A stretch of 63,627 nt of DNA from an archaeon. GTDB taxonomy: Archaea; Nanobdellota; Nanobdellia; Pacearchaeales; GW2011-AR1. Both the position numbers and the translations under genes were made by a program. The notes beneath the pieces were generated by a model. The model was not told the DNA's origin. It worked only from the letters and a program-made list of their open reading frames with translations, and did no database searches. Numbering within the stretch: the stretch's first letter is position 1; the number at the start of each line of letters is the position of its first letter. Below are positions 98-61,400 of the stretch, piece after piece. Location of the stretch: the NCBI GenBank assembly GCA_018657525.1, contig JABHWZ010000014.1:1-63627 (forward strand). Direction: 5' to 3'.

Positions 98-105
98 TTT
101 TTTAT

Positions 106-330
106 ACCTCCTTTTATATTCTATTAGTATGAGGAGGTTCTCGTGACCTTTAGGTTACCTCCTTTTATATTCTATTAGTATGAGGAGGTTCTCGTGACCT
201 TTAGGTTACCTCCTTTTATATTCTATTAGTATGAGGAGGTTCTCGCCTGGTTCACCAGGTTCTCGTGCCCTATAGGGTATGCCCTTTAGGTTACCTGTCC
301 TCAGGTTCTTGTGACCTTTAGGTTACCTCC
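106..330 (-). repeat. 51-bp tandem repeats with alternating SD and anti-SD motifs
   Basis: Units start at 106, 157 and 208 (exact period 51; first two identical, third diverging after about 245). A degenerate remainder ends with a fourth ACCTCC at 325-330. On the minus strand, which is the leader of the gene at 1-97, each unit contains AGGAGGT (SD) and ACCTCCTC (at 131-138, 182-189, 233-240), which is complementary to it. The units also contain a small GTGACC-TTTA-GGTTAC hairpin. No open frame runs through the array. Confidence 0.85.
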
Positions 331-4425: not shown

Positions 4426-4452
4426 AACTTTCATTTTTTTCTATACCTGTAA

Positions 4453-4592
4453 GTTCTTTTTTTGAAAAAAGAACCCCGAGGGAATTGTTCATAAGATTGC
4501 AAGAGAAAACGATTCTCACTCAAAATTTCATCAGAAATTTTCAATATATTTTTCTTTTGCACTGTAGATTTTCTTTTTAAAAAGAAAATCCC
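4453..4592 (+). repeat. Structured dispersed element, copy A (one full, one truncated)
   Basis: The full copy spans 4480-4592. GGGAATTGTT pairs with AACGATTC through one G-T wobble, followed by an AAAATTTC-ATCA-GAAATTTT hairpin, an AT-rich spacer ending CACTGTA, and a GATTTTCTTTTT/AAAAAGAAAATC hairpin closed by CCC. Immediately before it, 4453-4476 is the terminal hairpin (GTTCTTTTTT/AAAAAAGAAC, then CCCC) of a second, otherwise missing copy. The element lies between adk and ndk, both plus strand. Confidence 0.8.
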
Positions 4593-4596
4593 AAAC

Positions 4597-7430: not shown

Positions 7431-7692
7431 GGGGAATCGTTCGCAGGAAACAATTAAAAGAAACGTCTCATTCATAAATCTCATTAGAGATTAATCAACA
7501 TATTTTTCTTTTACATGGTAGATTTGCTCGAAGAGTACACCTTGCGTGCTCTTTTTGAAAAGAAAAGGGGGAGGGCCGGGAATCGTTCGCAGGAGGCAAA
7601 GAGAAAACGATTCTCACTCACAAATCTCTGACGAGATTTGTCCACATATTTTTTTCTACCACTGTAGGTTCTTTTTTTGAAAAAAGAACCCC
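7431..7692 (+). repeat. Structured dispersed element, copies B1 (decayed) and B2 (intact)
   Basis: This gene-free stretch (7380-7694) is almost wholly two tandem copies. B1 (7431-7571) starts GGGGAATCGTT but its first hairpin has lost pairing, and its last hairpin carries an insertion (GCTCGAAGAGTAC...GTGCTC). B2 (7578-7692) is intact: GAATCGTT/AACGATTC, ACAAATCTC-TGAC-GAGATTTGT and GGTTCTTTTTT/AAAAAAGAACC, closed by GGG...CCC. B2 ends 3 nt before the stop of the YdjM-like gene. Confidence 0.82.
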
Positions 7693-7694
7693 AT

Positions 7695-14075: not shown

Positions 14076-14546
14076 TTATTTAATTTTTAAAACAATTTTA
14101 TCTTCATTTAATTTAAATCCCACACCCACCTCATAATCTGAAAAAAAATGAAATTTATATCCTCCACTCGAAGATAAGCTAACCATCAACAAATTGGCTT
14201 CATTATCTATCTTAACTAGTTTAGTCACCTCAAGATTTCCTTTCAAATCAACTACATTATTTTTACTAGCAATTTTATAACCCTCTGTAAAATCTATCTC
14301 TAACTCCATGCCAGGCGTTGCTCCATCAATCAAGAGTGCAATTTCTTTTGCATATAACTGTTCAGAATTCAAAGTTCCAGTAGAAACTCTAGCAATAAAA
14401 ATAATCAAAAAAGTAAAAAAAAGAATATTCCCAATAGTGTAAATAATAATTGGAGAAATCATATCATTTTTTTCTCCACGTTTATCAAATAACAACCCTC
14501 TTTTCATTTTCCGTGCTTCGCGATGCCTATGCGTAATGGCTTTCAT
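14076..14546 (-). CDS. Pilin-like protein 5, operon head
   Basis: 156 residues starting MKAITHRHREARKMKRG. A second basic site, LFDKRG, precedes EKNDMISPIIIYTIGNILFF and the rest of the membrane helix. The remaining 100 residues are a beta-rich extracellular domain without cysteine pairs. The start is supported by TTTATTAA 22 nt upstream; an internal ATG at M14 is the alternative. It heads a four-gene operon (14546 down to 12164). Its promoter region is duplicated upstream of the small pilin-like gene at 17439-17558. Confidence 0.62.
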   Translation of the reverse strand: MKAITHRHREARKMKRGLLFDKRGEKNDMISPIIIYTIGNILFFTFLIIFIARVSTGTLNSEQLYAKEIALLIDGATPGMELEIDFTEGYKIASKNNVVDLKGNLEVTKLVKIDNEANLLMVSLSSSGGYKFHFFSDYEVGVGFKLNEDKIVLKIK

Positions 14547-14740
14547 AAAATCCTAAATCAAAATTACTTTAATAAATTATCTAAAACAACAATTTTTAAA
14601 AACAAACTTTTCATTAAAATTAAATCACATTCATGGAATCACTTCCACTTGGAACACAACAGGACAGGCATGATACAAATACACCGAATTCTTTAGGAAC
14701 TCCTCGCTCAAAATTTTCAAGATTAGTTAAAATAATTGGA
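14544..14740 (+). repeat. Duplicated bidirectional promoter and gene 5' end, copy 1 (without element)
   Basis: The sequence from the start codon of the minus-strand pilin-like gene, across the intergenic region, into the first 35 codons of the plus-strand gene at 14633 is closely similar to 17556-17866. A 32-nt block (14684-14715 versus 17814-17845) is identical. Copy 1 has ACAACAA where copy 2 carries the 115-bp structured element. Confidence 0.8.
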
Positions 14741-15760
14741 ATAATCGGATTAGGAACAGGATTGATTTTTGGAGGGAAATATTTATGGAAACAAGATAAA
14801 AACCAAAAAGATACAGAAATTTCTAAAACAGAACAAATTTCAGAACAAGCACCTAAAAACCATCCTACCCCTTCTTTAATGGATTCAATACTCTGCACTA
14901 AACCACCCACAGAAGAACCAACAACTAAAGAAAAGATACTCACTCCAAAAGAAATAAATAAAATATTCGAACCAACTCCCAAACCAATAACAACACAAAA
15001 GACATTATCCACAACTCCTCCCGCAAATAAAAAAGAATATCAACCCCTTGAAATAAGGGGATATAATTCTAAATCTATAACAAAAGTAATTCCTCGCGAT
15101 TGGAATTTTGACATAAATCAAGCTACAACAAAGATTTATCCCGGAAGAGAAGACAATTTTTTAGTGGAAATTGTTTTAAATTTAAACTCCTCAGCAAATT
15201 TAAGGAAAAGAATAGATGAAAAGCAAACAAAAAATTTAACTTCAGTCATGATATTAAAAAACAATAATGCAACTTATCTTCAATGGATTGGAGAAATGTC
15301 TCAAGAAGAAAAAGAACGAGGAGAACAATATATCCAAGAAAAAATTAAACAAATAAACCCAGAAACTTATGGCCCCCTTTTTACCAACTTGCATGAATAT
15401 GAGGGAAAAGCATTCAGGTTAAGTAAAGGCATAATGGAATACCAAGAAAAAAATGAAAATTTTCCAGATGATTTAAGTCAAATTTTTTCATATATTGACC
15501 CTAAAAACTACATATTATCAGACACCGGAACTCCCTTTCCAAAAACAGCAGAAGATGTACAAAAAGGCAATTGTGATTTTTATTATTTTAAACCAGATAG
15601 AACAGTAAAACAAAATCCTAAAAATCCGCTTATAATAAAAATCCCTCGTAGAAAGGATAGATGCCTAGATAAAATATGGGTAATAACTTGGGATCTTGAT
15701 TTGATAAAAATATCTTTACCAGAAAGGGATAGAATTTTGCAAAAATATAATCTAAAATAA
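14633..15760 (+). CDS. Membrane-anchored protein with the NSLGTPRSKFSRL N-terminal signature
   Basis: 375 residues. A short cytoplasmic N-terminus with TPNSLGTPRSKFSRL is followed by one membrane helix (VKIIGIIGLGTGLIFGGKYLW, about 32-52). A Pro/Thr/Lys-rich linker of about 90 residues comes next, then a globular domain (about 150-375). The fold is not recognised; the C-terminal part has WVITWDLDLIKI and a CDFYYFKPDR segment. It is on the opposite strand to the surrounding pilin genes. The N-terminal signature and upstream DNA are shared with the gene at 17757. The outside orientation of the large domain is inferred from the basic N-terminus. Confidence 0.62.
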   Translation: MESLPLGTQQDRHDTNTPNSLGTPRSKFSRLVKIIGIIGLGTGLIFGGKYLWKQDKNQKDTEISKTEQISEQAPKNHPTPSLMDSILCTKPPTEEPTTKEKILTPKEINKIFEPTPKPITTQKTLSTTPPANKKEYQPLEIRGYNSKSITKVIPRDWNFDINQATTKIYPGREDNFLVEIVLNLNSSANLRKRIDEKQTKNLTSVMILKNNNATYLQWIGEMSQEEKERGEQYIQEKIKQINPETYGPLFTNLHEYEGKAFRLSKGIMEYQEKNENFPDDLSQIFSYIDPKNYILSDTGTPFPKTAEDVQKGNCDFYYFKPDRTVKQNPKNPLIIKIPRRKDRCLDKIWVITWDLDLIKISLPERDRILQKYNLK

Positions 15761-15764
15761 AATT

Positions 15765-16304
15765 CTAAACTCCTTGACCCTCTAAGTCTTTAAGAGCTTC
15801 AGACATCGGGTCACTTTCAGGATCCACAACATAAGGTCTAACAGTTATTTTGTCTGCTGCAGCAAAAATTGTCAACGTTTTAGGTCCATCCCCCTTAATC
15901 AAATAAATCACATGATCAGAGAGTACAATTTCAATTTTCTTTTTTGAATTTGAACAGATCCCCAATTTTGAACAACTCTCATAATTCTGAAGAGTATCCA
16001 AAATCTTGACCCCCTCTGGACAAAAACACAAAGCTTTCTCATTCTGTTTATTAAAATCCATAAGTTTCCAACCCACCGGATTTGTCAAAAGATAATCTGC
16101 CTTACCTCCATTCTCTAATTCATTTCCTTTGTTAATAATGTTTTCTAGATGAAGTGTAGCTTGCTGTAATTTATACTGCCCCATTAAAATCCCATAAAAA
16201 CTTACTGTCAAATAGAGTAAAGCTGCAATTACTAGAACTGCAATCAAAATTTTCAAAACTTCCGGCATCAAAATTCCTTTTTTATTAAATTTTTTTTTAT
16301 TCAT
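15765..16304 (-). CDS. Type IV pilin-like protein 6
   Basis: 179 residues. The class III site FNKKG is followed by ILMPEVLKILIAVLVIAALL, with Glu at position 5 of the mature helix (ILMPE), the residue typical of true type IV pilins. The extracellular domain holds four cysteines (CFCPEG, ESCSKLGIC) and a beta-rich C-terminus. The start abuts the stop of the upstream pilin-like gene, so the two are co-translated. Confidence 0.7.
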   Translation of the reverse strand: MNKKKFNKKGILMPEVLKILIAVLVIAALLYLTVSFYGILMGQYKLQQATLHLENIINKGNELENGGKADYLLTNPVGWKLMDFNKQNEKALCFCPEGVKILDTLQNYESCSKLGICSNSKKKIEIVLSDHVIYLIKGDGPKTLTIFAAADKITVRPYVVDPESDPMSEALKDLEGQGV

Positions 16305-17414
16305 TTAAGGGAACCCCTCAATAACTCCACAATACTTAGAGATATCCTTATAATCATAATTCGTAACTCTTACTACACTACAACCAGTCCGAGCCTGCTC
16401 CCCACTTAATAAAACATCTTCACATTTTGAAAGACTAACTGCCCGATTATTAATTGCAGTTCCTTGCACAACTCCTCCTGCGATTAATATAATTCCTGCA
16501 CAAAGCGGAAGGAATTTATAACAAGTAGTTCCTGCTTCCCAGATTTTTTTTGGTGCCCCCATGATAGTTTTTATTGGAGAAATAAGTAAGCTTAAAGATG
16601 CTCCAGCCAATGCAACATTCCCAAAATTTTTCCAAACAGTAGCTTTTGTAGGGGCACTAATCTGCATAAAAAATATTGCTAATTCCTCTGTATCATCCCC
16701 TGGAGTAACAGGAGCATCAATCAAATTCACATCAAATCCATCAACTTTTATTTCTTTCTCATCCTTTTTACCTTCATCTTGTTTATAGGAACCCCCTTCT
16801 AATTTAATATCATCCTTAACTGCAAACCCTCCACTAATCCCAGTCATATATTTTGTGTAACTCACCTCTGTTCCAGCAATTTTATGAGTGTTCATATAAT
16901 TAACCGGGTCTACTTTGGATAAATCAATCTTTGAATCTAAATTCTCTTTATCAAATGCAATTCGAGAACAAATTACACAAGAAGGATAAACCCCCCCTAT
17001 CCCAAACTCTGCTTTAGTCTGCTCAAATAAACTAACTTTCCCCTCCCCCATCATAGTCCAACAATCCAAAACTTTTTGAGCAATTAACTTTTCCACGTCT
17101 GCATTCTTTTCAACTTTTGCTTTATCAACTCCCTTCTCATTCTCAAAATCCTCACACTCTGAACCAACAAATTTACTAGTCACGCAAAGCTTTTCAGTAT
17201 AACAGTTCAAAGGGATATATTTATTTCCAAAAGGAGCAGTAGCTCTTAAAATTACACTTTCATGACACGCTGTAGCATCAATCACGTCGATAAAAGCAAA
17301 TCTATAAAACAAAAAAAGCACAATAGCAAAACCCGCCAGCATGATAATTATATTTACAGATTGCGAAGACATTATCTCTGCTTTTTTATTTAACCCTCTT
17401 CTTTTCATATTCAA
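16305..17414 (-). CDS. Large pilin-like protein 7
   Basis: 369 residues. The N-terminus MNMKRRGLNKKA precedes EIMSSQSVNIIIMLAGFAIV, giving a KKA-E class III-like cleavage. A second and third hydrophobic region near residues 275-320 (NVALAGASLSLLI, LCAGIILIAGGVV) is unusual for a pilin and suggests additional membrane helices. Many cysteines (CHES, NCYTEKLC, CVIC, CEDV, CSVV, YCGV) imply disulfides. The next gene follows without spacing. The function is presumed to be a structural component of the pilus-like machine. Confidence 0.6.
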   Translation of the reverse strand: MNMKRRGLNKKAEIMSSQSVNIIIMLAGFAIVLFLFYRFAFIDVIDATACHESVILRATAPFGNKYIPLNCYTEKLCVTSKFVGSECEDFENEKGVDKAKVEKNADVEKLIAQKVLDCWTMMGEGKVSLFEQTKAEFGIGGVYPSCVICSRIAFDKENLDSKIDLSKVDPVNYMNTHKIAGTEVSYTKYMTGISGGFAVKDDIKLEGGSYKQDEGKKDEKEIKVDGFDVNLIDAPVTPGDDTEELAIFFMQISAPTKATVWKNFGNVALAGASLSLLISPIKTIMGAPKKIWEAGTTCYKFLPLCAGIILIAGGVVQGTAINNRAVSLSKCEDVLLSGEQARTGCSVVRVTNYDYKDISKYCGVIEGFP

Positions 17415-17438
17415 AATAAATTTCTCTTATTTAATAAT

Positions 17439-17558
17439 TTAACTAATTAAACGATTAATCAAAAAATAAACTCCTGCCACAATAATCACAAAAAAAAGAA
17501 TCCAAACAACTCGATTAACTAAACTTTCGGAAACATCAGCAGCACCTTTTTTTTTCAT
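17439..17558 (-). CDS. Miniature pilin-like membrane peptide, 39 aa
   Basis: MKKKGAADVSESLVNRVVW is followed by ILFFVIIVAGVYFLINRLIS: a KKKG class III-like site, then one membrane helix, with essentially no extracellular domain. The ATG at 17556-17558 uses the duplicated promoter (TTTATTAA 22 nt upstream), and the gene lies 24 nt before the start of pilin-like protein 7, so it heads that operon. Its size resembles small Flp-type pilins, but no Flp motif is visible. Confidence 0.6.
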   Translation of the reverse strand: MKKKGAADVSESLVNRVVWILFFVIIVAGVYFLINRLIS

Positions 17559-17866
17559 AAAATCTTAAACAAAAATTACTTTAATAAATTATCTAAACAG
17601 GGAATCGTTCTTCGGATTGCAAGAAAAAACGATTCTCACTCACAAATCTTGGATAAGATTTGTCAATATATTTTTTTCTACCACTGTAGGTTCTTTTGTT
17701 GAAAAAAGAACCCCAAATCTTAAAAACAAACTTTCCATTAAAATTAAATCACACTCATGGAATTAATTCCCTCGGGAAACAAACCAGCACATGAGACGTA
17801 TAACACTGATACGCCGAATTCTTTAGGAACTCCTCGCTCAAAATTCTCAAGATTGTTAAAAAAAAT
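17556..17866 (+). repeat. Duplicated bidirectional promoter and gene 5' end, copy 2 (with element)
   Basis: Counterpart of 14544-14740. Left flank TAATAAATTATCTAAA and right flank TTAAAAACAAACTTTCCATT match copy 1, but 115 bp of structured element (17600-17714) lie between them. Confidence 0.8.
17600..17714 (+). repeat. Structured dispersed element, copy C (intact)
   Basis: GGGAATCGTT opens and GAACCCC closes the unit. Hairpins: GAATCGTT/AACGATTC, ACAAATCTT-GGAT-AAGATTTGT and GGTTCTTTTGTTGAAAAAAGAACC. It sits inside the duplicated intergenic region, between two divergent start codons, and therefore in the leader or promoter of the FGE-like gene. Confidence 0.85.
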
Positions 17867-20800
17867 TAAATCTTTAGCACTTCCAATTTTTGCAGCAGCC
17901 GCATTGTATCTTTCTCCTCAAACAAATGCAGGTGAAATATATAATGAAGTTCACAAAGTGAAACTAATGGGAACAATGAATTCAAATGTTTCAAAAGCCA
18001 CACCGATAACTAGAAACTTAGCAGTTGTGGCACAACTTAAAGAAAACTCTGCAACCGAAAACCCCTCAGACTATTTTTTAAATTTAAAATATAGAATAAG
18101 CGGAGAACCAAAATTTAAAAATTCGGTAATAAAAATCCCGCCTCACTTAAAAACATATATTAATTATCAACTGCACTTTTTAGGAATTGCTCACCCTCCG
18201 GCAGTCATTATCTCCCCGCCAACAAATGAAACAATTTTTTCAGAAACCTACAAGGGAAACAAAGCGACTTCTTTATCTCAAAGTTCAAAAATGAGCGAAA
18301 TAGAATTTACAATAGCCAAATCTATATTAGACAAAACTCTAAATAAGGCCCACCCCCTAGCAAAAACAACATTCCATAAACTTGTAAAATGGGAAAAAAA
18401 CAAATACCAAAAATTCTGGCAACAAGAAGCAACAACAATAAATCCTAATTGGCAATTAACTCAAATTCCCATTTATCGATTAGCAAGATTGACCGAAAAA
18501 GAAAATCCTGGAGTTGAAAAAGGAAGATCCTTTACAATCCCAATTTCAGCAGACAATGGCAAAACTCTCGAAGGAAAATTAATACTCAAATTAGATTTAT
18601 CCCAAAATGACTTATGTGGTTCTATTAATTTTACAATTCCATTATCTGAAGAAACAAAAATAAAAAAAGATCAAGAAAGATTATGGATAAACAACCAACA
18701 TTATGGGGAATATCCTGCAGCACTAGTTTCATTAGATCAGGGAAAAGTGATTCCCCTCCCTAAAGAGGGAATGTTACCAAAAAAAATTCTCGCGGATTTA
18801 TGGATTGAACCATGCGATCCAGAAATAGGAATAATAAATTCAAAAAATGAAAATGAAATTGGAATAAAAAAACTTGGAGGAAAAGTTTCAATTTTAGAGA
18901 TTCCCAAAGCAAATTATGAGTCCATTAAAGGGCCCAATTTAGAAACACTATTATCTTCCAAAGCAGATGGAATAAGAAACCCAGAAAAAGGCACTTCTTT
19001 TTTAGTGAGGTCTAGTGAAAACCAAATTTACAAAGTTAGAATAATAGGAATCACCCCAGAAAGAACCCAAAAAGGAAGAGAATCATCTATGGCATTAGAA
19101 TTTTCAAAATTAGAAAGTTCACTGATTCCATTAAATATTACCTTACCCCCAGAAAACACTACCGCAAAAAACTTTCTAATCTGTCCAGGAGAATCTCCAG
19201 CAGGAAGTCGTCTAGCCTCGAGAAAAGAAGCATTAGAAATGTTGGGGATAGAAACAAATCCAGGAAGATCAGAAATCCCAAAAGAATCTTCAGATAAATA
19301 CAGAGCAGCAGCATATTATAAATTAAAATCAGGCACAGATATGATAATTTTTAAACAAGGTCTAAGAAACACATACGAAACTCTAAAAGAAATTAAATCT
19401 TATAATCAACGTTGGATGGATGATGATTTAATGGCAATATTATTAAATGGGCAAAATGCATTATACGTAAAAATTGATGGGAAAAAAGCAACATCTAAAG
19501 ACATTCAATCTATGGGATTACCTATTTCAGCAATAAGAAAAGAATTTGCTCCAGAACACTTCGCAATAAATCCTCTTATTAAAAAACTTGAAAATATTAA
19601 ATTGTTGGGCAAAGAAATACAAATTGAAAAAATTCCAACATGGTTTAAAGGCAATCAAGATCAAATTTCTCAAGCAAAAAAATTAGGTATCCCTGTAGCA
19701 AAGGAATATGAATTAGGCGGAGCAAAAATGAAGTTAGTTTTAATTCCAGGTAACCAAGAGATCAATCCTTTTTATCTCTCAATCTACGAAACAACAAATC
19801 AAGAGTATAAAACTTTCTATCCGAATCACACCACATTTAATATTATTGAATATGTAGATAATAGGGGAAAGAAAATCTTTCGCACAGGCACCTCAGATAA
19901 AGACAATCAACCAGCGACCCTTCTTTCAGTTAAAGAAGCAGAAGGATTTTGCGAACAAACCAGCTTAGCATTAAAAAGAAAAATTAGGCTTCCGACATCA
20001 AGAGAATGGAAACATGCTAACAAAACAACCCCTCGAAAAGGTAACTTTAAGGGAAATCTCCGCAAAACATTTTTATCGCCTAAAGCAGTAAATCCATGGG
20101 CAATAGATAACATTGATTTCACTTGCGAGGGAGGAAGATTTAACCCCAATGAATTTGGACTATATGATATGGTGGGTAATGCCTCAGAATTAACCAGCAC
20201 AAATAAAAATCAACTAGAAAGAGTTTGTGAAGGGAGTAGCTTTAAAGATGATGTGGAGTATAAAACAAAAACTCTCCCCTTAGATAAAAAAGTAAGGGGT
20301 ATGGACGTAGGCATAAGAATTGTAGAAGAACTTACCCCAGAACAATTAGCAATGCATCCGTCTCTTCAACAAAACACTTCTATTTCAAAAGAAAAAGGTT
20401 TTGTAATCCCAGAAGGAATCTCGCGCCCATATTTAATCTGCCCAGAAGAAGTTCCAGAAGGAAGTCGATTAAGAACTCCCCTAAAATATCTTAAGGAAAC
20501 CCAAGGGGATAGACAAGTAATGTACTCCTTAAATAGATCAACATTCTTCAAAATTACCCATGAACATCCTTCTGAAATAAAAATAGATACGATGAAAATT
20601 TGTCTTAAAGTAGGAAAAGCAAGCCTTAGTGCAGGAGCAATATTCTTTCTAGAAGATAATAGTATATTAACTCTACAAAAATCGAAAAAATCTTCATCTA
20701 CTAGAGAAACTGAAGCAGTAAAAGAAGCCATCAATAGAACTCTACAAAAAGTAAATCCTCCAGAATATTATGTGGAAAAAGAAGTTAGTTTAAAAGATAT

Positions 20801-22696: not shown

Positions 22697-22879
22697 GGGG
22701 AATCGTCTTCTTGTATAATTCTAAAACGACTTGGTCGCTACTTTTTTTGAAAAAAGAACCCCGGGGGAATCGTTCTTCGGATTGCAAGAAAAAACGATTC
22801 TCACTCACAAATCTTGAATAAGATTTGTCAACATATTTTTCTTTTGCACTGTAGATTTTCTTTTTGAAAAGAAAATCCC
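22697..22879 (+). repeat. Structured dispersed element, copies D1 (shortened) and D2 (intact)
   Basis: D1 (22697-22762) starts GGGGAATCGTC and ends in the TTTTTTTGAAAAAAGAACCCC arm, with the central hairpin missing. D2 (22765-22879) is complete: GAATCGTT/AACGATTC, ACAAATCTT-GAAT-AAGATTTGT and GATTTTCTTTTT/AAAAGAAAATC then CCC. D2 ends 3 nt from the stop of the FlaJ-like gene. The tandem arrangement of a damaged and an intact copy recalls copies A and B. Confidence 0.83.
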
Positions 22880-22881
22880 AT

Positions 22882-47650: not shown

Positions 47651-48970
47651 TTAGTCAGGAATCAAAGAAAAAGAACTATTTTTTTCTGCAACTCGAGCAG
47701 CCAAATCTTTCACATCTTCCAATTCAACTTTCAAAATATTTTTTTCAAATTCATAATATTCTTTAGCATCACCATCAATTTCAGCCATTAATAAATTAAC
47801 CATTTGAGTTTGTGAATCCTCCATTGAAATCTGATAGTTTCCAACTAATTGTTTTTTAATCTGATTTAGCTCTTCCTCACTTAAACTCTCGGCCACATTT
47901 TTAAATTCATTTAAGATTAATTTTTTGACTTTATCTAATTTTTCACTAGTAGTTCCAACATAAATAAAATTATAAGCAAATTTAAAATTAATATCTGAAC
48001 CCCCCTTAACTGCATAAGCTAAATTTCTCTTTTCCCGAATCTCACTAAACAATCTTGAAGACATCCCCTCCGCCATAAGAGTTGATAAAACTTGAGCAGC
48101 GTATGCTTTTTTCTGCCCAGCCAACGGAACATCATAAGCAAAAATAAAATTCGCTTGATCAATCCCTTTTCTTTTTTCAATTTTATTTTCATTTTTTAAA
48201 CTAACTTTGATATCCAAAACTTGCCCCTTTGATTTACTGAAATTTTTTTCAGCAAATTTAACAACTTCTTCAAATTCTGCATCACCCACTATACAAAGAA
48301 TCATATTATTTGGATTATAAATTTTATTAAATTTATTTAAAATCTTTTTCTTATCAATTGAATTCATTGTTTCTTCAGTTCCAATTAAACTAGTTCCAAG
48401 AGGTTTTTCGTAAAGACATCCCGGAATTTTATCAAAGACACAAATCATCGGAGTATCATTCCTCATTTTAATTTCTTCAAAAATAACTTTTCTTTCTTTT
48501 TCTAATTCTTTTTCATCAAATAATGGATTTTTAACCATATCGCTCAAAACCTCAAGAGCAACATTTAAATGATCCGCAGGCATTTTACACCAATAAGCAG
48601 TCACTAATTCTCCAGTGAAACCATTTAGCTCACCCCCATTTTTCTCAATTTCTTCAGCAATCTGTTTAGAATTTCGAGTAGCAGTCCCTTTGTATAACAT
48701 ATGTTCAATATAATGTGAAATTCCCTTCTCTTTCTCTGTCTCATTTATCCCGCCATTCCTAACAGCAAAAGCTACACTTACCACTGGAATATCTCTCTTC
48801 TCAAAAAGCAAAGTCATTCCATTAGACAAAACTTTTCTTTGGAAGTTTTGGCTTTGTAAATGTTCTTTTGAACTTTGCTTAGACAAAACTTTTCTTTGAA
48901 AGTTTTGGATTTGTAGGACTTCTTTAGAATCCTGCTTAGACAAAACTTTTCTTTGGAAATCAAATTTCAT
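47651..48970 (-). CDS. M16-family zinc peptidase with repeated N-terminus
   Basis: 439 residues. The inverted zinc motif HYIEH (in KGISHYIEHMLYKGT) and the downstream Glu-containing segment GELVTAYWCKMPADHL identify an M16 (pitrilysin/processing-peptidase-like) enzyme. ANFIFAYDVPLAG and EGMSSRLFSEIREKRNLAYAV complete the second half. Before the normal start of the family (KVLSNGMTLLFEKRD) there are two extra copies of a 19-residue unit, each containing NFQRKVLSK or DFQRKVLSK. No signal peptide is visible. The ATG at 48970 is supported by a TATA box. A single 420-residue M16 subunit is usual in DPANN and bacteria. Confidence 0.9.
   Translation of the reverse strand: MKFDFQRKVLSKQDSKEVLQIQNFQRKVLSKQSSKEHLQSQNFQRKVLSNGMTLLFEKRDIPVVSVAFAVRNGGINETEKEKGISHYIEHMLYKGTATRNSKQIAEEIEKNGGELNGFTGELVTAYWCKMPADHLNVALEVLSDMVKNPLFDEKELEKERKVIFEEIKMRNDTPMICVFDKIPGCLYEKPLGTSLIGTEETMNSIDKKKILNKFNKIYNPNNMILCIVGDAEFEEVVKFAEKNFSKSKGQVLDIKVSLKNENKIEKRKGIDQANFIFAYDVPLAGQKKAYAAQVLSTLMAEGMSSRLFSEIREKRNLAYAVKGGSDINFKFAYNFIYVGTTSEKLDKVKKLILNEFKNVAESLSEEELNQIKKQLVGNYQISMEDSQTQMVNLLMAEIDGDAKEYYEFEKNILKVELEDVKDLAARVAEKNSSFSLIPD
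48822..48959 (-). repeat. In-frame 57-bp tandem repeat at the M16 peptidase N-terminus
   Basis: Units begin at 48822, 48879 and 48936 (exact period 57, 19 codons). Each contains TTAGACAAAACTTTTCTTT on the plus strand. The first encoded copy is partial and the last runs into the peptidase domain. Two full extra units precede the family start. Confidence 0.85.
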
Positions 48971-52075: not shown

Positions 52076-52438
52076 ATGAATTTTTTAGGATTATTTAAAA
52101 AAAAGAAAGTGCCATCAAAAAAACAAGAACTTAAAAATCTTGCATTAAAAAAATTAACTAAGTTAAAACTAAAAAGATTTTCTCCAAAAAAAACAGAAGA
52201 ATTCATAAGAGTCTTTAGAATTTATATGCAAAAAAAATTTAATTTTAAAGATCAAGCAACTCACCAAAATTTATTAAAAAATATTCAACAAAAAAGAATT
52301 AAAAAAAATCTAAAAAAGAAAATTGAAGAAATTTCACTTAGAATAGATCAAAATGAATATCAAGGAATGTTAATCAGCGGTCAAGAACTAAACATAATCA
52401 TAGAAGAACTAAAAAAATTAATAGAAGAAATTAACTAA
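52076..52438 (+). CDS. Small lysine-rich helical protein, divergent from MoxR
   Basis: 120 residues, MNFLGLFKKKKVPSKKQEL onward, very rich in Lys (about 25 percent), with a helical segment FIRVFRIYMQKKFNFKDQATH and an acidic C-terminal helix (ELNIIIEELKKLIEEIN). No membrane helix or cysteine. The FIRVFRIYMQKKF pattern resembles helical regions in proteins coupled to MoxR systems, but this is only a suggestion. The stop overlaps the convergent giant gene by 8 nt. Confidence 0.6.
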   Translation: MNFLGLFKKKKVPSKKQELKNLALKKLTKLKLKRFSPKKTEEFIRVFRIYMQKKFNFKDQATHQNLLKNIQQKRIKKNLKKKIEEISLRIDQNEYQGMLISGQELNIIIEELKKLIEEIN

Positions 52439-55400
52439 AAATATCTTTTTTCTTAGAAGTTTTTGCTTTCTTTTTTTTACCAAAACTAAATGCTGAAAAA
52501 AATCCTTTTGAAGATTTTGAAATCCCTTTCATATTATTTTGTTTCTTTTTCATTCTAAATAAAATCATTAGACCAATCATAGATAATGCAAATAATACTG
52601 AAGTCACTGCAACAGGAATCTGCCATCTTCCTTGTGAAACAAGTGAGCTTACTCTTTTAATGAGTGATTCTTTTGTGGTGATTAAATCTCTGCACTCTTT
52701 TATTGCATACTCTACTAGCTCCTTTGCTTGTTCTGGATTCTCTTCCATAGTTTGTTCTGCTTCAATAAGATAATCATTAAACTCTAAACACTGAGGGTTC
52801 TGTCTAAATAAATCCTCTACTAAAACAATCCTCTCACTAACAAAATCAGAATTTAAATCTTCAACTAATTTAATGAAAATTTTTGCAGTCTGATAAATTT
52901 TTGGATTTTCAACACTCACATTTAAATCTATTTCATACTCTCCAGGGAAAGAATGAGAATTAATAATCATGTTAACTACTTCTGATTTTCCTACACCAAT
53001 TGAGTCAACTTCCTCTCTATCAAATTCTGTTGAAAGATCTCCAGTATTTGGTGTTGCATTCAATTTAACATTTGAAAGTGTAGAACTATCTAATGGGTTT
53101 CTCAAAGTAAGGGGCATAATAATCTGGTCAGCCAACTCCATTGTTGCTTTACCAGGCGTCACAATTTCCAAATTTGCATAAACTGTTGTTGTTCCTCCTC
53201 CGCCACTCGAAGAAACTGTAACAGTATTTGTTGTAACTGCATCTTCCACAATTAAAAACCTTGACATCCCAATCATTGTCGACGACAAAATATTTGTAGT
53301 AATATTTGGAGTAGAAGATTGTAAAACCAAACTACAATTTGAAGCATTAGAACATTTGTAAACATCTAAATCATCCTCATCATTAATTGAATATTCCAAA
53401 TCTGAATAATTATAGTAAATAGTATAATTTGAAAAATTCAAGTTATCATCTTTTTCTAAATCAAATATATCTACAACTCTTTTTTCAGAAGGAGGACTTA
53501 TTTCTACGCTCCTCCTCAAAGTATAATTTAAGAATTCAGAAATATTTTCTGAAGTAATATTCGCATAAGTTAGATAAATAGTTTTAGGCTCGCTCTCCAT
53601 TGAAAGGTTTATATTAAATAAAGCAGCTTGAGGAAGAGAGCCAATAATTGAACTCCCATTCATAATTAATTCTCCTGATTTAATGTCAGTAATTGTGAAA
53701 TTTGTTACATCAGAACCTGACCAATTAACAGTTCTCGCTTCGCTCGAACTTACATTCAGCGACGAATAAAGTGACTGTGCCTCAACATCTGTAATAGTTA
53801 AAATAAACTCATAAATTCCTGAAACATTCGAAGCATAAGTATAATTAAAACTGCTAATATAATCATTAGTTCCGTTATTATCTGTAAAATTTTCAAATGA
53901 ATTAATTCTATAATAATTTCCATCCGGATGTTTAACTGTTAAATTCTCTGATTGTAAAATAGTGTCTAAATCAAAGTTTGCACTCAACAGCACATTATCC
54001 CCATTAATTAAATATGAAAGATTAGAATTAAAAGAATTAATTTGAGGATTGTCAGTATCTCCCGCTCCAATTGGCCGAACTAAAAGTAAAATTCTACTGC
54101 TAGTAACATTAATTGCACTTCCAATAGCGTTATTAAAACCATATGCAGTTAGAGTGATATATCTTGGGCTTAATATAGGGACAGTATAATTAGATTCATA
54201 TTCTGTCGAAGACAAATTTGAAATTGGAAGCTCTGAAGTTGAATTAAAATCGTCCACAATTAAAGTAATATTATCTACGTAATCTGAACCATACACAATA
54301 GAAAGATTCACCTCAATAAAATTTCCTGCTCGCACTAATTCTGATTCTTCGGGAGTTGTGAAATTTATCAAACCAACAGTATATGTTCGAATCTCTGAAA
54401 TGTTTGAATTATTTGCGTCGTCGTAACATCTCATATAATAATTATGCATTCCCCCCTCCATTGAAAGAGTTTGAGTTGTATACGAGGCATTTACTGAATA
54501 TGTTCTGTTAATTTCTATATCATCAACAACTGAATAACAACTTAAGTTTGTATCCAGATTATCTTGAACAGTCCAATTCAGAGTTACACTATATGTTCCC
54601 GCAGTCAAATTAGTAGGAGTAGGGTCATAAAGAGTGATATTCCACGGTGCTATAAAATCAGTAGTAAAATTTCGCGTCTCAGAATAAAAGACATTATCTG
54701 CAAGATCATAAGCAGTAACATTATACTTATATGTCTGCCCACCCTCTAAGTTTGTGAAATTTGCTTTATGCAGGTTGTATAAGTTAGTTATTTCGGTTTG
54801 GGTTAGGGCTTTATTAAAGATTCTTACTTCATCTATTGAGCCATTAAAATACGAACCACATCCTGTAACTCCTCCACCAATGTTCCAGTTTGCTGCAGTA
54901 CTTAAATTAACTTCAGTGCCATATGCTACACCTAATCCTTCTTCAACACCATTTATATATACTTTAGTGTTTGCGGTATTCAACCCATCACCAGCATAAG
55001 TTACAGTTATAAATTGCCATTCATTAAGAGAAGTACTATTTGCTGTTCTCAAATCATGCCCATAAGCTGAGATATATAATCTTAATCCTGAATCAGTACT
55101 TATTCCTAAATGCTGCTCACCATAAGCACAGACTCCTTGCGAATATAAAGGACCATAACTTTCACCATTAACCCACATTGTAATTGTTCGGGAACTATCC
55201 CCCGTCGGTAGTCCTGAAGTAGCAGTAGAATTAACTATATAATCCCCCTCCCCATCAAACACAGCAGCATTCCCATAATAACCAGTATCTAAATAAGTAT
55301 CAGAATAATTAGTTCCATCATTTCCTATATCAGAATAATCTTGATAATCATTATCAAAACTCCAGTAACCCACCTGATATTGTGACAAATTAAAAAGACT

Positions 55401-58400
55401 ATAATTTGAATCAAAAAGTCCTGTCGAATTGTAAAGGTTAACTGTTGTATTTTTCTCGTGCGTTTCATTAACTGAAAATTTAACTTCAAACCATGACCGA
55501 TTCCAAAATCCACCGTCGGAAAGCATATCTGAAGTAAAATTAATTGTTCCAGCAGTCTGATCTAAATGATAAGTTTGATTACTCGAAGCAAAACCGCAAT
55601 TGCTTGAATTATCACACGCATAACAACTCCAGTCAAAAGTTTTCTCCTCGAGCCCAGTCAAGGTAAAAGTAGTTGAATTTGTCAAACCACTAACTGAACT
55701 ACTTTCATTTGCAATCCAGCTTCCAGAATAATTTGTATAAAGTGTTATATTAGCAAGTTCATTCACATCTGTTACAGAACAATTAAATGTAATATTCTCA
55801 TAACTAACTTCATGATTAATCGGCGAGTTTAAAGTTATTGTAGGAGCAGTTGTATCGACGGTAATCTCCTGCGAAGTCAAGTTAACATTCCCCGCCCCAT
55901 CCTGAGCATAAGCCTTGAAAGTATGCGCACCATCAGCCAAGTCCGTAAAATTAACGTCTAAATATTTCGAACTAATATTCGCATAAAGCCCAACAATCTC
56001 ATCAGCAGATAAGGAACGATTGAATATCATAACGTCATCTATTGAGCCGTTAGGGCTCCATGCACCGTTTCCTCTACCAATATGTAAATCCCCCGAATTA
56101 CTTGATATATTTCCAGTAGCAGGTGTATTTTTATTTAATACTCCATCTACATACACTGATATTGTTGTTCCATTATAGGTTGAAACAACATGAATCCATC
56201 TTCCTGTAATTTCTGATATCGCATTAGAAGTACCGTATTGAGGAGTCAACCCAGTATAGCCAGTATAGATCTTTGAGTCACCTTCGCTAAGAATTATCGA
56301 GTAACCAGCTGTCCAATCTGCCCCCCTTGACAACAATGCCGCGTTAGAAGGGAAGGAATCAAGGAATATCCAACCAGACAATGTTGCGAAAGTTGTTAGG
56401 TGTGTATCATTCCCAACTTCCACCCAATCATCATCCCCATCAAAACTAAACGCATCCCCAATCTTCCCATCACTTGTCAAAACCGCATCACCAACAGCTG
56501 TCCCATTATTCAATCCCAAATAATCCGTCGGATCCCCAGAACCATTCACATCATCCATCCTCCACCAAGCAACTAAACTATTATCAAAATCAATAAACGT
56601 CGAAACATTATCTCCGACATCTGATGAACTAACATTAACATAAATATTATCATTTGGTGTAACACTTCCATTTGCGAGGGTTGGGTCTTCAAAATCAACT
56701 GATGGAGCAGGGTCCACAAGTTCAAGATTCATCTGTATACTTGACGTTAAATTTATACTCGAATTATAGTAAGAATTTAATCCTAATTTAGATGCATTAA
56801 GTGAATGAGGGGTGTAATATGTTTTTCCAGATGAATTTTCAGTGTATGATAATAAAGTTTGTCTTTCAATATTTCCGTCTGTTCCTGTAAGTACTGAAAA
56901 TACTTTTTCAGAATTATTATTCCATGAAGTTACATTTACTCCTGATTTAGAATTGTCTAATGTATCATTAACATAAACATCTAAGTAGTATGAGACATTT
57001 AAATCTAACACATCGTTTATTGAAGTTTCTGATTGATTAAAAGTAACATTAACAAAATTAATCCATGAACCTGCATCTGTATCTGTGCTAGTATAGAAGT
57101 CAATTGCCCCAGTTGCATCTAATACTGTATTAGTAACTGTTGCTGTAATAACATCCACATTAGCAATTAAAGCATAAGTACCTGCCGCTTGGGTTGTTAT
57201 ATTGCCCCCAATTACAGTTGTATTAAGCGAATCATCATAAAGATAAATACCATGACCTCCCCCTTTTGTTGTTAATATGTTATTATTTGATAGATAGTTA
57301 GAATTTGAACTACTGATATAAACACCCCTATTATTCCATTCTGTTATAGTTATGTTGTTTGAATCTATGGTGTTATTATTAGATGATAAGAGATAAATCC
57401 CCTCTTTTTGCTGGCTTGTAGATGTCAATATTGTGTTGCTTAATAAATTATTAAAATTTGAGGATGAAAGAGAAATACTATCTCCTGAACCACCAGATGT
57501 CGAAATATTGTTTGAGGTTATATTATTATAATCTGAAGATGTACGAAGATAAATTCCATGACCGTACCCTCCAGAAGTTGTTATATTATTATTTAATAGA
57601 TTATTATAATTTGAAGATGTAAAAAGATAAATTCCATAACCGTACCCTCCAGAAGTTGTTATAGTATTATCAGTAACATTATTAGAATCTGAACTATAAT
57701 ATAATGAGACACCATAACCATATGATTTGGTTATACTTATATTATTATTACTAACTGTAGAATTTTCAGTATAATATAAGCTAATACCATTATCTGTAAG
57801 ATTAAAATTCTTTATTGTTATGTTATTACAATAAGCAAATATTATCTGTCCATACTGAGTTGAACTAATTCCATCAAATACTATATTCTCATAATTATAG
57901 GTGTAATTTAATGGCTTTCCGTCTGCCAGATTATCTGGTCCAATTGTATTGTTGTAATCTGTAATTGTTGTCCCATATATATAGTAAGGATATGCAGCTA
58001 ATGCCGTAACATTATTGTTTGTAAAGTTATTGTTTTGGGAAGAAGCATGATAGATTCCATGAGCAAGACCACCTGAAGTATTGATTTTGTTATTGATTAT
58101 AATATTATTGTTTGAGGAATCAAACCAAATTCCATATGAGGCCCCTCCAAGTGTTGTTAATATATTATTATTCGATATAGTATTTGAGTTTGAATTAGTA
58201 CCAAAATAAATACCTCTAGTATTCCATTCTGTAGCAGTTATGTTGTTTGAATCTAGGGTGTTATTACTAGATGATGTGAGTTTAATTCCCCTTGTTTGCT
58301 GTGCCACAGAGGATATCATAGTATTACTTGACACATTATTAAAATTTGATGATGAAATAACGATATTATCTCCATCTTTGCCAGATTCAGAAAGATTATT

Positions 58401-61400
58401 TGAGATAACTTTATTATAATTCGATGAGGAAGCAAGATAGATTCCATAACCATATTGCCCTAAATTAATTATTGTATTATTCTCGATTGTTCCATTACTA
58501 GCACCTGAAAAATAAATACCATATTTATATCTTGTAGTACCTATTCCTTCTTTAATAACACAATTCTTGATAGTAGTGAAATTATAACCATCAGAATTAT
58601 CAATACCACGTCCATAAGTTCCACTGTAAGAATAATTTATTTCATAACCTTGACAATCTAAAGTTATGTTGTTTGCTAAGATATTTATACAAGTTCCACT
58701 TGAACTAACATTACTGCTTAGATAATATGTTGCACCTTCAGAAGTTAAATTATCACAATCAGTCAAGTCTTCACCTATTACCCAATTTGTATTATTTCCT
58801 GAATCAACCGAATGTTCTGCATATATTTGACTACCATAACTAGCATTAGAATCCATCACATCTGTATAATCAACATCACCTGTTCCTGAAAGGTTCAAAT
58901 ACCACTGCTCCCCGTCAACCGTACTTCTCAAATAAACATCATCACTACTATTTCCCTGAACAATAAACTCGTTCGTAACGTTTATAATACTTCCAGTAGT
59001 AAAAAGCACCGACCCTATTTTCTTAGTAATATTCAAATTGTAAAACGACTCATTATTATGAATTGTTATATTGTCCGAAGAATCCCCAAAGAAATTTATC
59101 GTACTAATATTCTCATCAAAAGTTCCAGTATTATTCCAATCACCATAAACCATCAGTGAAGTGTTGACCTCCAAAATACCCGAGTTTCTTATTGTAACTT
59201 TTCCTACTGTTGTACCTGTTACATTCTCCCAGATTAAAGTACTTGTGCCATCACAAATTGCACGATTATCTGGATTGTCAATAATTAATTCTCCATAATC
59301 CTCATCAACTTTTTCTATATATATTGTACCTGCTGCTCCATCTGTATTTCCAGCATTACCTCCATATGTTTTTATAGTTCCTATAAATTCATTATAATCA
59401 TTTGAGCTAGTTAAGATAATTGCAATTCTCCCTCCGCCTCCACCAGTACAGCACCCGCCTCCATCATCATCACCCCCTATTGAGCTTATTGTTCCGTTAC
59501 CTGTCAAATTCCCTGTAATTAGATAAATACTTCCACCAGAACCTCCACCAGCATTATAGGTCCCCTCTGCTGAAATTGTACCACTTACATTTGTTATTCC
59601 AGTTACATTAAGCTTTATTGCTCCACCCCCAACACCAATACCCCCACTTCCACTTCCTAACTTTGTTGGAACTGTAATTGAGCCATAAGTCTTTCTCGAA
59701 GAATCTCCATTACAAGCATAATCTCCCCCAACACCCCCATAACTTGCTCCATTACTGCTTCCACCAGGAGTACCAGGACCTTGGCCACTATCATAACCCT
59801 TTCCATCAACATCAATTGTACCTCCCGGTTCTATTGTTAAATTTCCATCAATTGTTAGATTAATCTTATATGTTTCTGCATTTGAATTATCGCTATGAGT
59901 AATTCCTCCATCGCTTTTTATTATCCAGTTTCCAGTAGTCGAAATATAATCATCAAGAATCAAAGTATAGCCTGAAATATTAAACTCGCCTGGAAAACTA
60001 ACCCCTGTAGAGTTCATTATAACAATAAAAGAATCATCTGGCCCTTCTCCAGTAATATTGAGATTTGTGAAATTTAATGTATCATTCCCATCAACAGCCA
60101 AATATCCATTGTTTAGTATAGTAATGTTTGAAAATTGATGAACTGTTTCATTTACCATTAAGGTATAGACTCCAAGAACCATAGTCCTATCATTATTATC
60201 AATAATTAATGTTCCAGTTTCTGGTGCTTGAGAAGCTGTTTCTTTATATATTGTTCCAGCAGCAGCATCAGAAGCTGTATTACCTCCAAAAGCTGTTATT
60301 GTACCAGTAAATGAGACAAAATCTGTTGCGTTTGTTAAAATAATTGAGACCCTTCCACCTCCACCGGCACTGGAACTACCCGAACCAGTACCACCACCAT
60401 TTGCTGTTATTGTTCCGTTACCTGTTATATTTCTTGTAGTTATATAGATACTTCCTCCTGAACCTCCGCCACCATTAACATATATTCCATTTGAATTGAG
60501 TGAACCATTAAAATTAAATTCTCCAGTTACATTAAGTATAATTGCTCCACCACCATTATTGCTTCCACCACTTGCACTTCCAATGTCTGTAGGAGCAGTT
60601 ATTGAACCATAAGTAGTGCCCCCCGCCGGTGCTAGCCCCCCATAACATCCAGGATAACCAGGCCCATTACCTGCTTTCCAACCCAACCCCTCACTATTTA
60701 TCAAACTTCCATTCTCCAAACTAAAATTCCCAGCCGAGATCGTCACATTCCCCCCAGTAACATTCGCCCCATTTTGTATTGTCAAATTCCCACTCACCGT
60801 AATCGTCAACGAAGCACCATGATTACTCGACAACATTGTATCATTAATTATCGAACCATTCGAACCAATTATCAATCCTTCAAGCACAATCTCTTGCCCG
60901 TCTGTATATTGATAAGTATGATTCAAAATACAAACAGTTCCCTCAAAAGAGTCACAGAATCCAGAATAAATTTCCCATCCAGTATTATTTCCTGAATCTA
61001 TAGAAGTATAAGAGGATATTGTAGTTCCAGTATTATTTGAATCCATTATATCCGCAAAATTAACACTATAACTAGAACCAGAATAATTAAGATACCACTG
61101 AACTCCATCGGTTGTACTTCTCAAATATGAATAATCACTCGAGTTACCCTGAACATCAAACAAATTAGTTACATTAGTAACACCACCGACGGGGAAAAAC
61201 ACATACCCACCTTTCTTTGTAATATTTAAGCTATAGAAAGTTTCGTTATTATGGATCGTCGAGTTATCTGTTCCCACAAAATTTATCGTACTAACATTTT
61301 CATCAAAAGTTCCAGTATTATTCCAATCACCATAAACTGTTAGCGAAGTATTAACCTCTAATATTCCTGAATTTCTTATTGTTACATTTCCCACCGTTGT

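What the first reader, a model, noticed from the sequence alone, without database searches (positions are those of the whole stretch)
14544..17866. Occupied and empty site reveal insertion of the structured element
Two paralogous intergenic regions align closely on both sides (TAATAAATTATCTAAA left, TTAAAAACAAACTTT right). The 14.5-kb copy has about 6 nt (ACAACA) between them; the 17.6-kb copy has the 115-bp element. This is the pattern expected when a small element inserts cleanly, or is lost precisely, after the region was duplicated. It supports mobility of a MITE-like unit with no transposase in the window.
Basis: seen in the sequence. Interest (0 to 1): 0.8.

Follow-up and report, generated by a model that had tools for sequence, protein, structure and literature searches.

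The report
Small hairpin jumping element in archaea
The 116-letter insert is one copy of an apparently undescribed family of tiny hairpin-forming mobile DNA pieces in Pacearchaeota-type archaea; related genomes with and without a copy show that these pieces insert into tRNA and protein genes and duplicate 14 to 23 letters of the target, yet the enzyme that moves them is unknown.

Summary
Two divergent-promoter regions 3.1 kb apart align on both sides. One holds 11 nt (14586-14596); the other holds a 116-nt element (17600-17715) with three hairpins. The element lies at about 19 sites in this genome. Shorter relatives occur patchily in 17 other genomes of the same archaeal family. Its 3' module (TTTCTACCANxGTAG, stem-loop, CCCy) ends exactly at a covarying terminal base pair x:y.

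Insertion is shown best elsewhere. Orthologous occupied and empty sites reveal target duplications of 14-16 bp (tRNA-Arg), 15 bp (tRNA gene) and 23 bp (a GTPase gene start). At many tRNA sites an inverted piece of the target abuts the element's 5' side. Copies also sit in tRNA introns and in frame in a methyltransferase gene.

At the window's own site no target duplication is visible. Insertion there is likely, but precise loss is not excluded.

It is not a classical MITE: no terminal inverted repeats and no fixed duplication. It resembles REP (GTAG plus palindrome), but Y1 transposase, Cas1 and reverse transcriptase do not track with it. The most likely mechanism is target-primed copying from the 3' hairpin by an enzyme supplied in trans; that step is inferred (about 0.35).

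The parts
17600..17715 (+). full-length element (occupied site), 116 nt
17600..17637 (+). hairpin 1 (stem 17600-17609 with 17628-17637)
   Evidence: 3 of 10 pairs changed on both sides among 18 copies
17642..17663 (+). hairpin 2 (stem 17642-17650 with 17655-17663); its loop occurs in both orientations among copies
17676..17715 (+). 3' module: TTCTACCAC-T-GTAG (x=17685, GTAG 17686-17689), stem-loop 17690-17711, CCCA end (y=17715)
   Evidence: shared with 17 other genomes; x:y covariation
14586..14596 (+). empty counterpart: 11 nt ACAACAATTTT between the paralogous flanks
14541..14585 (+). left flank of the empty site (divergent promoter), 93% identical to 17553-17597
14597..14737 (+). right flank of the empty site (promoter plus leader codons), about 81% identical to 17716-17867
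17553..17597 (+). left flank of the occupied site
17716..17867 (+). right flank of the occupied site (promoter plus leader codons)
7578..7693 (+). second full-length copy, 116 nt
7432..7577 (+). divergent upstream copy with an insert in hairpin 3, head-to-tail with 7578-7693
4480..4593 (+). full-length copy, 114 nt
4433..4477 (+). 5'-truncated copy (3' module only), head-to-tail with 4480-4593; AAACTTT on both sides of the pair
22765..22880 (+). full-length copy, 116 nt
22697..22762 (+). internally deleted copy, head-to-tail with 22765-22880; ATCTAT on both sides of the pair

Best explanation
The 17.6-kb insert is a copy of a dispersed, non-autonomous, hairpin-built mobile element of Pacearchaeota-type archaea that landed in one of two duplicated promoter regions. 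SHOWN in the family: the element ends at its 3' side exactly at the closing base pair of a GTAG-footed hairpin (CCCy); its 5' extent varies (about 35 to 116 nt); at orthologous sites it appears together with a duplication of 14-23 bp of the target; and at many tRNA sites an inverted piece of the target abuts its 5' side. INFERRED: an enzyme supplied in trans recognises the 3' hairpin, nicks the target, and copies the element onto the exposed 3' end of the target starting at CCCy (target-primed copying, as for SINE/LINE elements). Copying runs out at a variable 5' point and sometimes snaps back onto the target strand, which leaves the inverted piece. A second cut 8-24 nt away, once filled in, gives the duplication. 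The confidence below is for the insertion of a mobile element; the target-primed copying step alone I put at about 0.35.
For: About 19 sites in the own genome, singly and in head-to-tail arrays. 18 of 181 genomes of the family, 9 of 87 genera, hold the 3' module; it is patchy inside genera and the reversed-pattern control gave no hit. A scan of 84,980 species found it only in records titled Pacearchaeota, Nanoarchaeota/Nanoarchaeia, Woesearchaeota (one contig) and archaeon GW2011_AR19. Occupied/empty orthologs: G217 L150 vs G218 (TSD TGAGCTACGGGCGC, 14-16 bp) and G044 L154 vs G218 (TGAGCTACGGAGCCA, 15 bp); G213 L190 vs G212, same genus, 51 nt inserted plus 23-bp TSD at a GTPase gene start. 19 of 110 non-array sites have a flanking direct repeat starting at the 3' junction with p<=0.01, about 1 expected. 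Terminal pair x:y: 97 of 107 Watson-Crick against 0 of 20000 permutations, and inspection adds about five G:C cases that the script could not score. Structure on 18 copies: 96.8% of cells paired, 40 doubly changed cells against 12.9 in shuffles, at most 4 in slid structures. In-frame insertion in a methyltransferase gene, absent from the orthologs in G218 and G165.
Against: No target duplication is visible at the window's own site. Only 6 of 18 element-bearing genomes have an RVT_1 reverse transcriptase; it is absent from near-complete G218, and the one in this genome looks like a diversity-generating retroelement. No autonomous copy was found next to the elements. In a general alignment test the inverted target piece is individually significant at only three tRNA sites.
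Confidence: 0.65

Rival explanations
1. REP/IS200-IS605-type single-strand transposition: a Y1 HUH transposase in trans recognises GTAG plus palindrome and cuts after CCCy, with xG acting as the guide that selects the cut; TSDs and inverted pieces come from repair.
For: GTAG at the foot of a palindrome with the end at CA, CT, CG or CC matched by x follows the type of guide rule described for TnpA_REP and IS608 (PMC8266576). Loops occur inverted, so hairpins form at the DNA level. Copies are non-autonomous, as REPs are.
Against: Y1_Tnp (PF01797) is above cut-off in 5 of 18 element genomes and 5 of 20 element-free ones, so there is no association; it is absent from this genome. No modules flank the Y1 genes examined in G007, G014, G015, G046 and G048. 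IS200/605 insertion makes no TSD and needs a fixed target motif at the left; neither fits.
Confidence: 0.22
2. Capture at staggered breaks: a discrete hairpin DNA or cDNA with a defined 3' end is joined into breaks in transcribed genes by host end joining; fill-in gives the TSD and templated repair gives the inverted pieces. No dedicated transposase.
For: Inverted target pieces at the 5' junction, variable 5' ends, no enzyme family in common.
Against: A constant 3' junction and one orientation relative to tRNA genes are not expected of random capture; the source of the discrete molecule is unexplained.
Confidence: 0.15
3. At this one site the element is ancestral and was lost precisely from the 14.5-kb copy after the promoter region was duplicated.
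For: No target duplication at the site; flanks differ by about 4 nt.
Against: The element is a dispersed family with shown insertions elsewhere; no remnant of the hairpins remains in the 11-nt counterpart.
Confidence: 0.2
4. A conserved regulatory RNA or terminator module kept by selection rather than a mobile element.
For: Compensatory changes; G217 and G218 share one tRNA-linked copy whose closing pair differs (T:A vs C:G); many copies lie next to gene ends.
Against: Orientation and position relative to genes vary; copies occur inside tRNA introns and in frame in a coding sequence; patchy within genera.
Confidence: 0.1

Closest known systems
REP sequences / REPtrons (GTAG-tagged palindromes mobilised by RAYT, TnpA_REP)
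   Same: short extragenic palindrome with an invariant GTAG at its 5' foot, an end at CA or CT, non-autonomous, arrays and patchy spread (PMC3733652, PMC8266576)
   Different: no RAYT associated; the terminal pair x:y lies outside GTAG; 14-23 bp target duplications; archaeal; up to 116 nt with three hairpins
SINE/LINE-type retroposition by target-primed reverse transcription
   Same: constant 3' end in a hairpin, variable 5' end, variable-length TSDs, foldback at the 5' junction (mechanistic likeness, from general knowledge)
   Different: archaeal; no tail; no associated reverse transcriptase found; RNA intermediate not shown
Rickettsial palindromic elements
   Same: hairpin repeats found in non-coding DNA, next to RNA genes and in frame inside proteins (likeness from general knowledge)
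   Different: unrelated sequence; target duplications and tRNA-intron copies seen here
MITEs
   Same: small, non-autonomous, dispersed, occupied/empty sites
   Different: no terminal inverted repeats; TSD not of fixed length
Casposons / Cas1 integration
   Same: target duplication of about 15 bp at tRNA genes
   Different: cas1 absent from all 18 element genomes; TSD length varies

Membership tests
MITE | terminal inverted repeats | tested here: not met
   ends GGGAATCG and GAACCCCA are not inverted repeats beyond GGG/CCC
MITE | target-site duplication of fixed length | tested here: not met
   14-16, 15 and 23 bp at orthologous empty sites; none at the window site
REP / REPtron | GTAG (or GGAG) at the foot of a short palindrome | tested here: met
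   GTAG at columns 87-90 in 17 of 18 full-length copies (GTGG in one) and in the clean modules of relatives
REP / REPtron | RAYT (Y1 HUH transposase) gene in the genome, flanked by the repeats | tested here: not met
   PF01797 absent from this genome; no association over 38 genomes; no flanking modules at the Y1 genes examined
IS200/IS605 derivative | insertion without target duplication, 3' of a fixed tetra/pentanucleotide | tested here: not met
   TSDs at tRNA and gene-start sites; left flanks not conserved in this genome
Target-primed retroposon | constant 3' end, variable 5' end, variable TSD | tested here: met
Target-primed retroposon | reverse transcriptase available | tested here: inconclusive
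   RVT_1 in 6 of 18 element genomes; several are drafts
Target-primed retroposon | RNA intermediate | not testable with these tools
   needs RNA data
Casposon / Cas1 integration | Cas1-type integrase | tested here: not met
   no PF01867 hit above cut-off in any element genome
Known RNA family | match to an Rfam model | tested here: not met
   no Rfam 15 match in the window at gathering scores
CRISPR-Cas12a repeat (solitary or mimic) | resident Cas12a | tested here: not met
   TIGR04330 found in 1 of 181 genomes, G164, which lacks the element

The most novel reading that the evidence does not exclude
An archaeal counterpart of SINEs: a structured RNA of 35-116 nt that is copied into DNA by target-primed synthesis from its 3' hairpin, preferentially into transcribed genes such as tRNAs, thereby creating tRNA introns, long tRNA leaders and in-frame protein inserts, driven by an unidentified enzyme.
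Probability: 0.22. Interest if true: 0.9.

Novelty: new variant of a known kind. Interest (0 to 1): 0.62.

Why it matters
Very small mobile repeats are well studied in bacteria. In the minimal genomes of DPANN archaea I found no description of them (open-access papers only). This family gives occupied/empty pairs, an exact 3' end with natural covariation, and targets inside tRNA genes. That makes two questions testable: where some archaeal tRNA introns come from, and how a 35-116-nt hairpin can move when no known transposase tracks with it.

Tried and rejected
Rfam: no match. Y1 transposase, RVT_1 and Cas1 as drivers: no association or absent. Cas12a repeat mimic: the 15-nt core of the Cas12a repeat of G164 (TTTCTACTATTGTAG) matches the module at 14 of 15, but Cas12a exists in only one genome of 181 and that genome has no element. 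Viral source: no hit in IMG/VR. Recurrent neighbour gene (autonomous copy): shared neighbours were orthologous housekeeping loci only. A target duplication at the window site (AAATCTTAAA on both sides, p about 0.03) was rejected because the empty paralog holds the sequence lying between the two copies. A general alignment test for the inverted target piece was underpowered at most sites. The exact-match genome scan for the window's own 40-mer found nothing.

Full report
OBSERVATION. The two regions align as described. The shared sequence runs from the start codon of the leftward gene, through a divergent promoter, into the first codons of the rightward gene. The two rightward genes share only a leader (TPNSLGTPRSKFSRL); one of them has a sulfatase-modifying-factor domain. 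The left 45 nt are 93% identical and the right about 150 nt about 81%. The empty copy has 11 nt in between. The occupied copy has the 116-nt element 17600-17715, with CA on its left and AATCT on its right. The genome holds no third comparable copy of this promoter region.

THE ELEMENT. In the host genome (828 kb, 14 contigs) it occurs at about 19 sites, often as head-to-tail composites and with truncated or nested copies. Full-length copies are 114-116 nt with three hairpins. On 18 copies 96.8% of the paired cells hold. Eight pairs show changes on both sides, with 40 doubly changed cells against 12.9 in shuffles and at most 4 in slid structures. Loops occur in both orientations (TTGAATAA/TTATTCAA, TCTGACGA/TCGTCAGA), as expected if the palindromes fold at the DNA level. 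Paired changes can therefore also arise by hairpin correction and do not by themselves prove an RNA function.

THE FAMILY. Related genomes hold mainly the 3' module: TTTCTACCANxGTAG, a stem-loop, then CCCy. The base x before GTAG and the last base y covary: T:A 85, C:G 9, A:T 3, and by inspection about five G:C, of 107 modules; 97 were Watson-Crick as scored, and no permutation in 20000 reached that. The element therefore ends exactly at its terminal base pair. The pattern is in 18 of 181 genomes of the family and 9 of 87 genera, patchily inside genera, with no control hit. Named records with the module are titled Pacearchaeota, Nanoarchaeota/Nanoarchaeia, archaeon GW2011_AR19 and one Woesearchaeota contig. 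None was found in viral contigs.

INSERTION. Three orthologous occupied/empty pairs exist. (1) G217 against G218 at tRNA-Arg: TGAGCTACGGGCGC(TT), 14-16 bp, is duplicated. (2) G044 against G218 at a tRNA gene: TGAGCTACGGAGCCA, 15 bp, is duplicated and the next bases AAGCC are shared with the empty site. (3) G213 against G212, the same genus, at the start of a GTPase gene: 51 nt inserted with a 23-bp duplication, so the gene keeps an intact start. In a scan of 110 non-array sites, 19 have a direct repeat beginning at the 3' junction with p<=0.01, about one expected. They include 19 bp at G075 L032, 19 bp at G168 L156, and 17 and 48 bp at L003 and L004 of the host genome.

TARGETS. About 21 of 106 loci are at tRNA genes, always with the element antisense to the tRNA. 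They lie at the D-arm with nt 1-14 duplicated (tRNA-Thr, Lys, Asn, Arg, Glu and others), inside the anticodon intron (tRNA-Val GAC in two genera, and ARAGORN calls at L049, L091 and L147), or directly after the 3' end (tRNA-Trp at L012). At the D-arm sites an inverted piece of the same tRNA sits at the element's 5' side: CCCGATAGTTC at the GAACTATCGGG tRNA, TATAGC at the GCTATA tRNA, CGTAGC at the GCTACG tRNAs. In a general alignment test only three of these are significant alone, so the rule rests on their fixed register. In G168 and G211 a module is read in frame inside a methyltransferase (WGSFTKRTYNGRK). G211 has a second module next to it. The orthologs in G218 and G165 have none.

MECHANISM. 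Shown: an exact 3' junction at CCCy, variable 5' extent, duplications of variable length, inverted target pieces, and one orientation relative to tRNA genes. Inferred: synthesis begins at the 3' hairpin on a nicked target strand, with occasional snap-back (about 0.35). The REP/IS200-like alternative explains GTAG, the end at CA and the x:y guide-like rule (PMC8266576) but not the duplications. Neither enzyme tracks with the family: Y1 is above cut-off in 5 of 18 element genomes against 5 of 20 element-free ones, RVT_1 is in 6 of 18, and Cas1 in none. The host's only RVT_1 gene follows a protein with a variable-domain-like C-terminus, as in diversity-generating retroelements.

THE WINDOW'S SITE. 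No target duplication is visible. Joining the occupied flanks gives TCTAAACA|AATCTTAAAAAC, against TCTAAAACAACAATTTTTAAAAAC in the empty copy. Given the family's behaviour, insertion is the better reading, but this pair alone does not show direction. No transposase, integrase or reverse transcriptase was found among the 38 window ORFs scanned.

VERDICT. The finding is a real occupied/empty pair of a mobile hairpin family. It is not a classical MITE, and it lacks the RAYT that would make it a REPtron. Novelty: new variant of a known kind. A literature search of open-access papers found no description of such an element in this group.

Noticed in passing
L161 (G168), L187 (G211), L175 (G210): Element modules inside a methyltransferase gene, read in frame as WGSFTKRTYNGRK (G168, G211; in G210 the reading frame around the module is short); G211 carries a second adjacent module; orthologs in G218 and G165 lack the insert.
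   Followed up: partly
L113, L158, L049, L091, L147: Elements inside tRNA introns at the canonical position 37/38; in tRNA-Val(GAC) of two genera the sequence next to the element forms a TTGA/TCAA helix like a bulge-helix-bulge motif.
   Followed up: partly
L296 / L306 (G164:C1:58777-64016): Complete cas12a-cas4-cas1-cas2 system with CRISPR array, the only one among 181 genomes of the family; its repeat core TTTCTACTATTGTAG resembles the element's TTTCTACCATTGTAG.
   Followed up: partly
L099 (G000:C8:207909-208511): Reverse transcriptase preceded by a protein with a C-terminal variable-domain-like region: probably a diversity-generating retroelement.
   Followed up: partly
L018, L029, L011, L109-L111: Unrelated hairpin-like inserts (e.g. 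CCGACGAAGAAGGAAAACTCGAAGCGACTCGTTCGCTAC) sit in the loop of the 3' hairpin in copies of G000 and G075: hairpin loops seem to be insertion hot spots.
   Followed up: no
window 105-257: Three tandem 51-nt units TACCTCC...GGAGGTTCTCG..., two identical and the third 82% identical.
   Followed up: no
window 48822-48935: In-frame 57-nt tandem duplication of the N-terminus of an M16 peptidase gene (FQRKVLSKQ...).
   Followed up: no
window 52431-63617: A 3,728-aa predicted surface protein with many internal repeats.
   Followed up: no
window 14633-14740 and 17757-17867: Two otherwise different ORFs share promoter, 5' UTR and a leader TPNSLGTPRSKFSRL, suggesting that a promoter-plus-leader cassette was duplicated within the pilus gene cluster.
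   Followed up: partly
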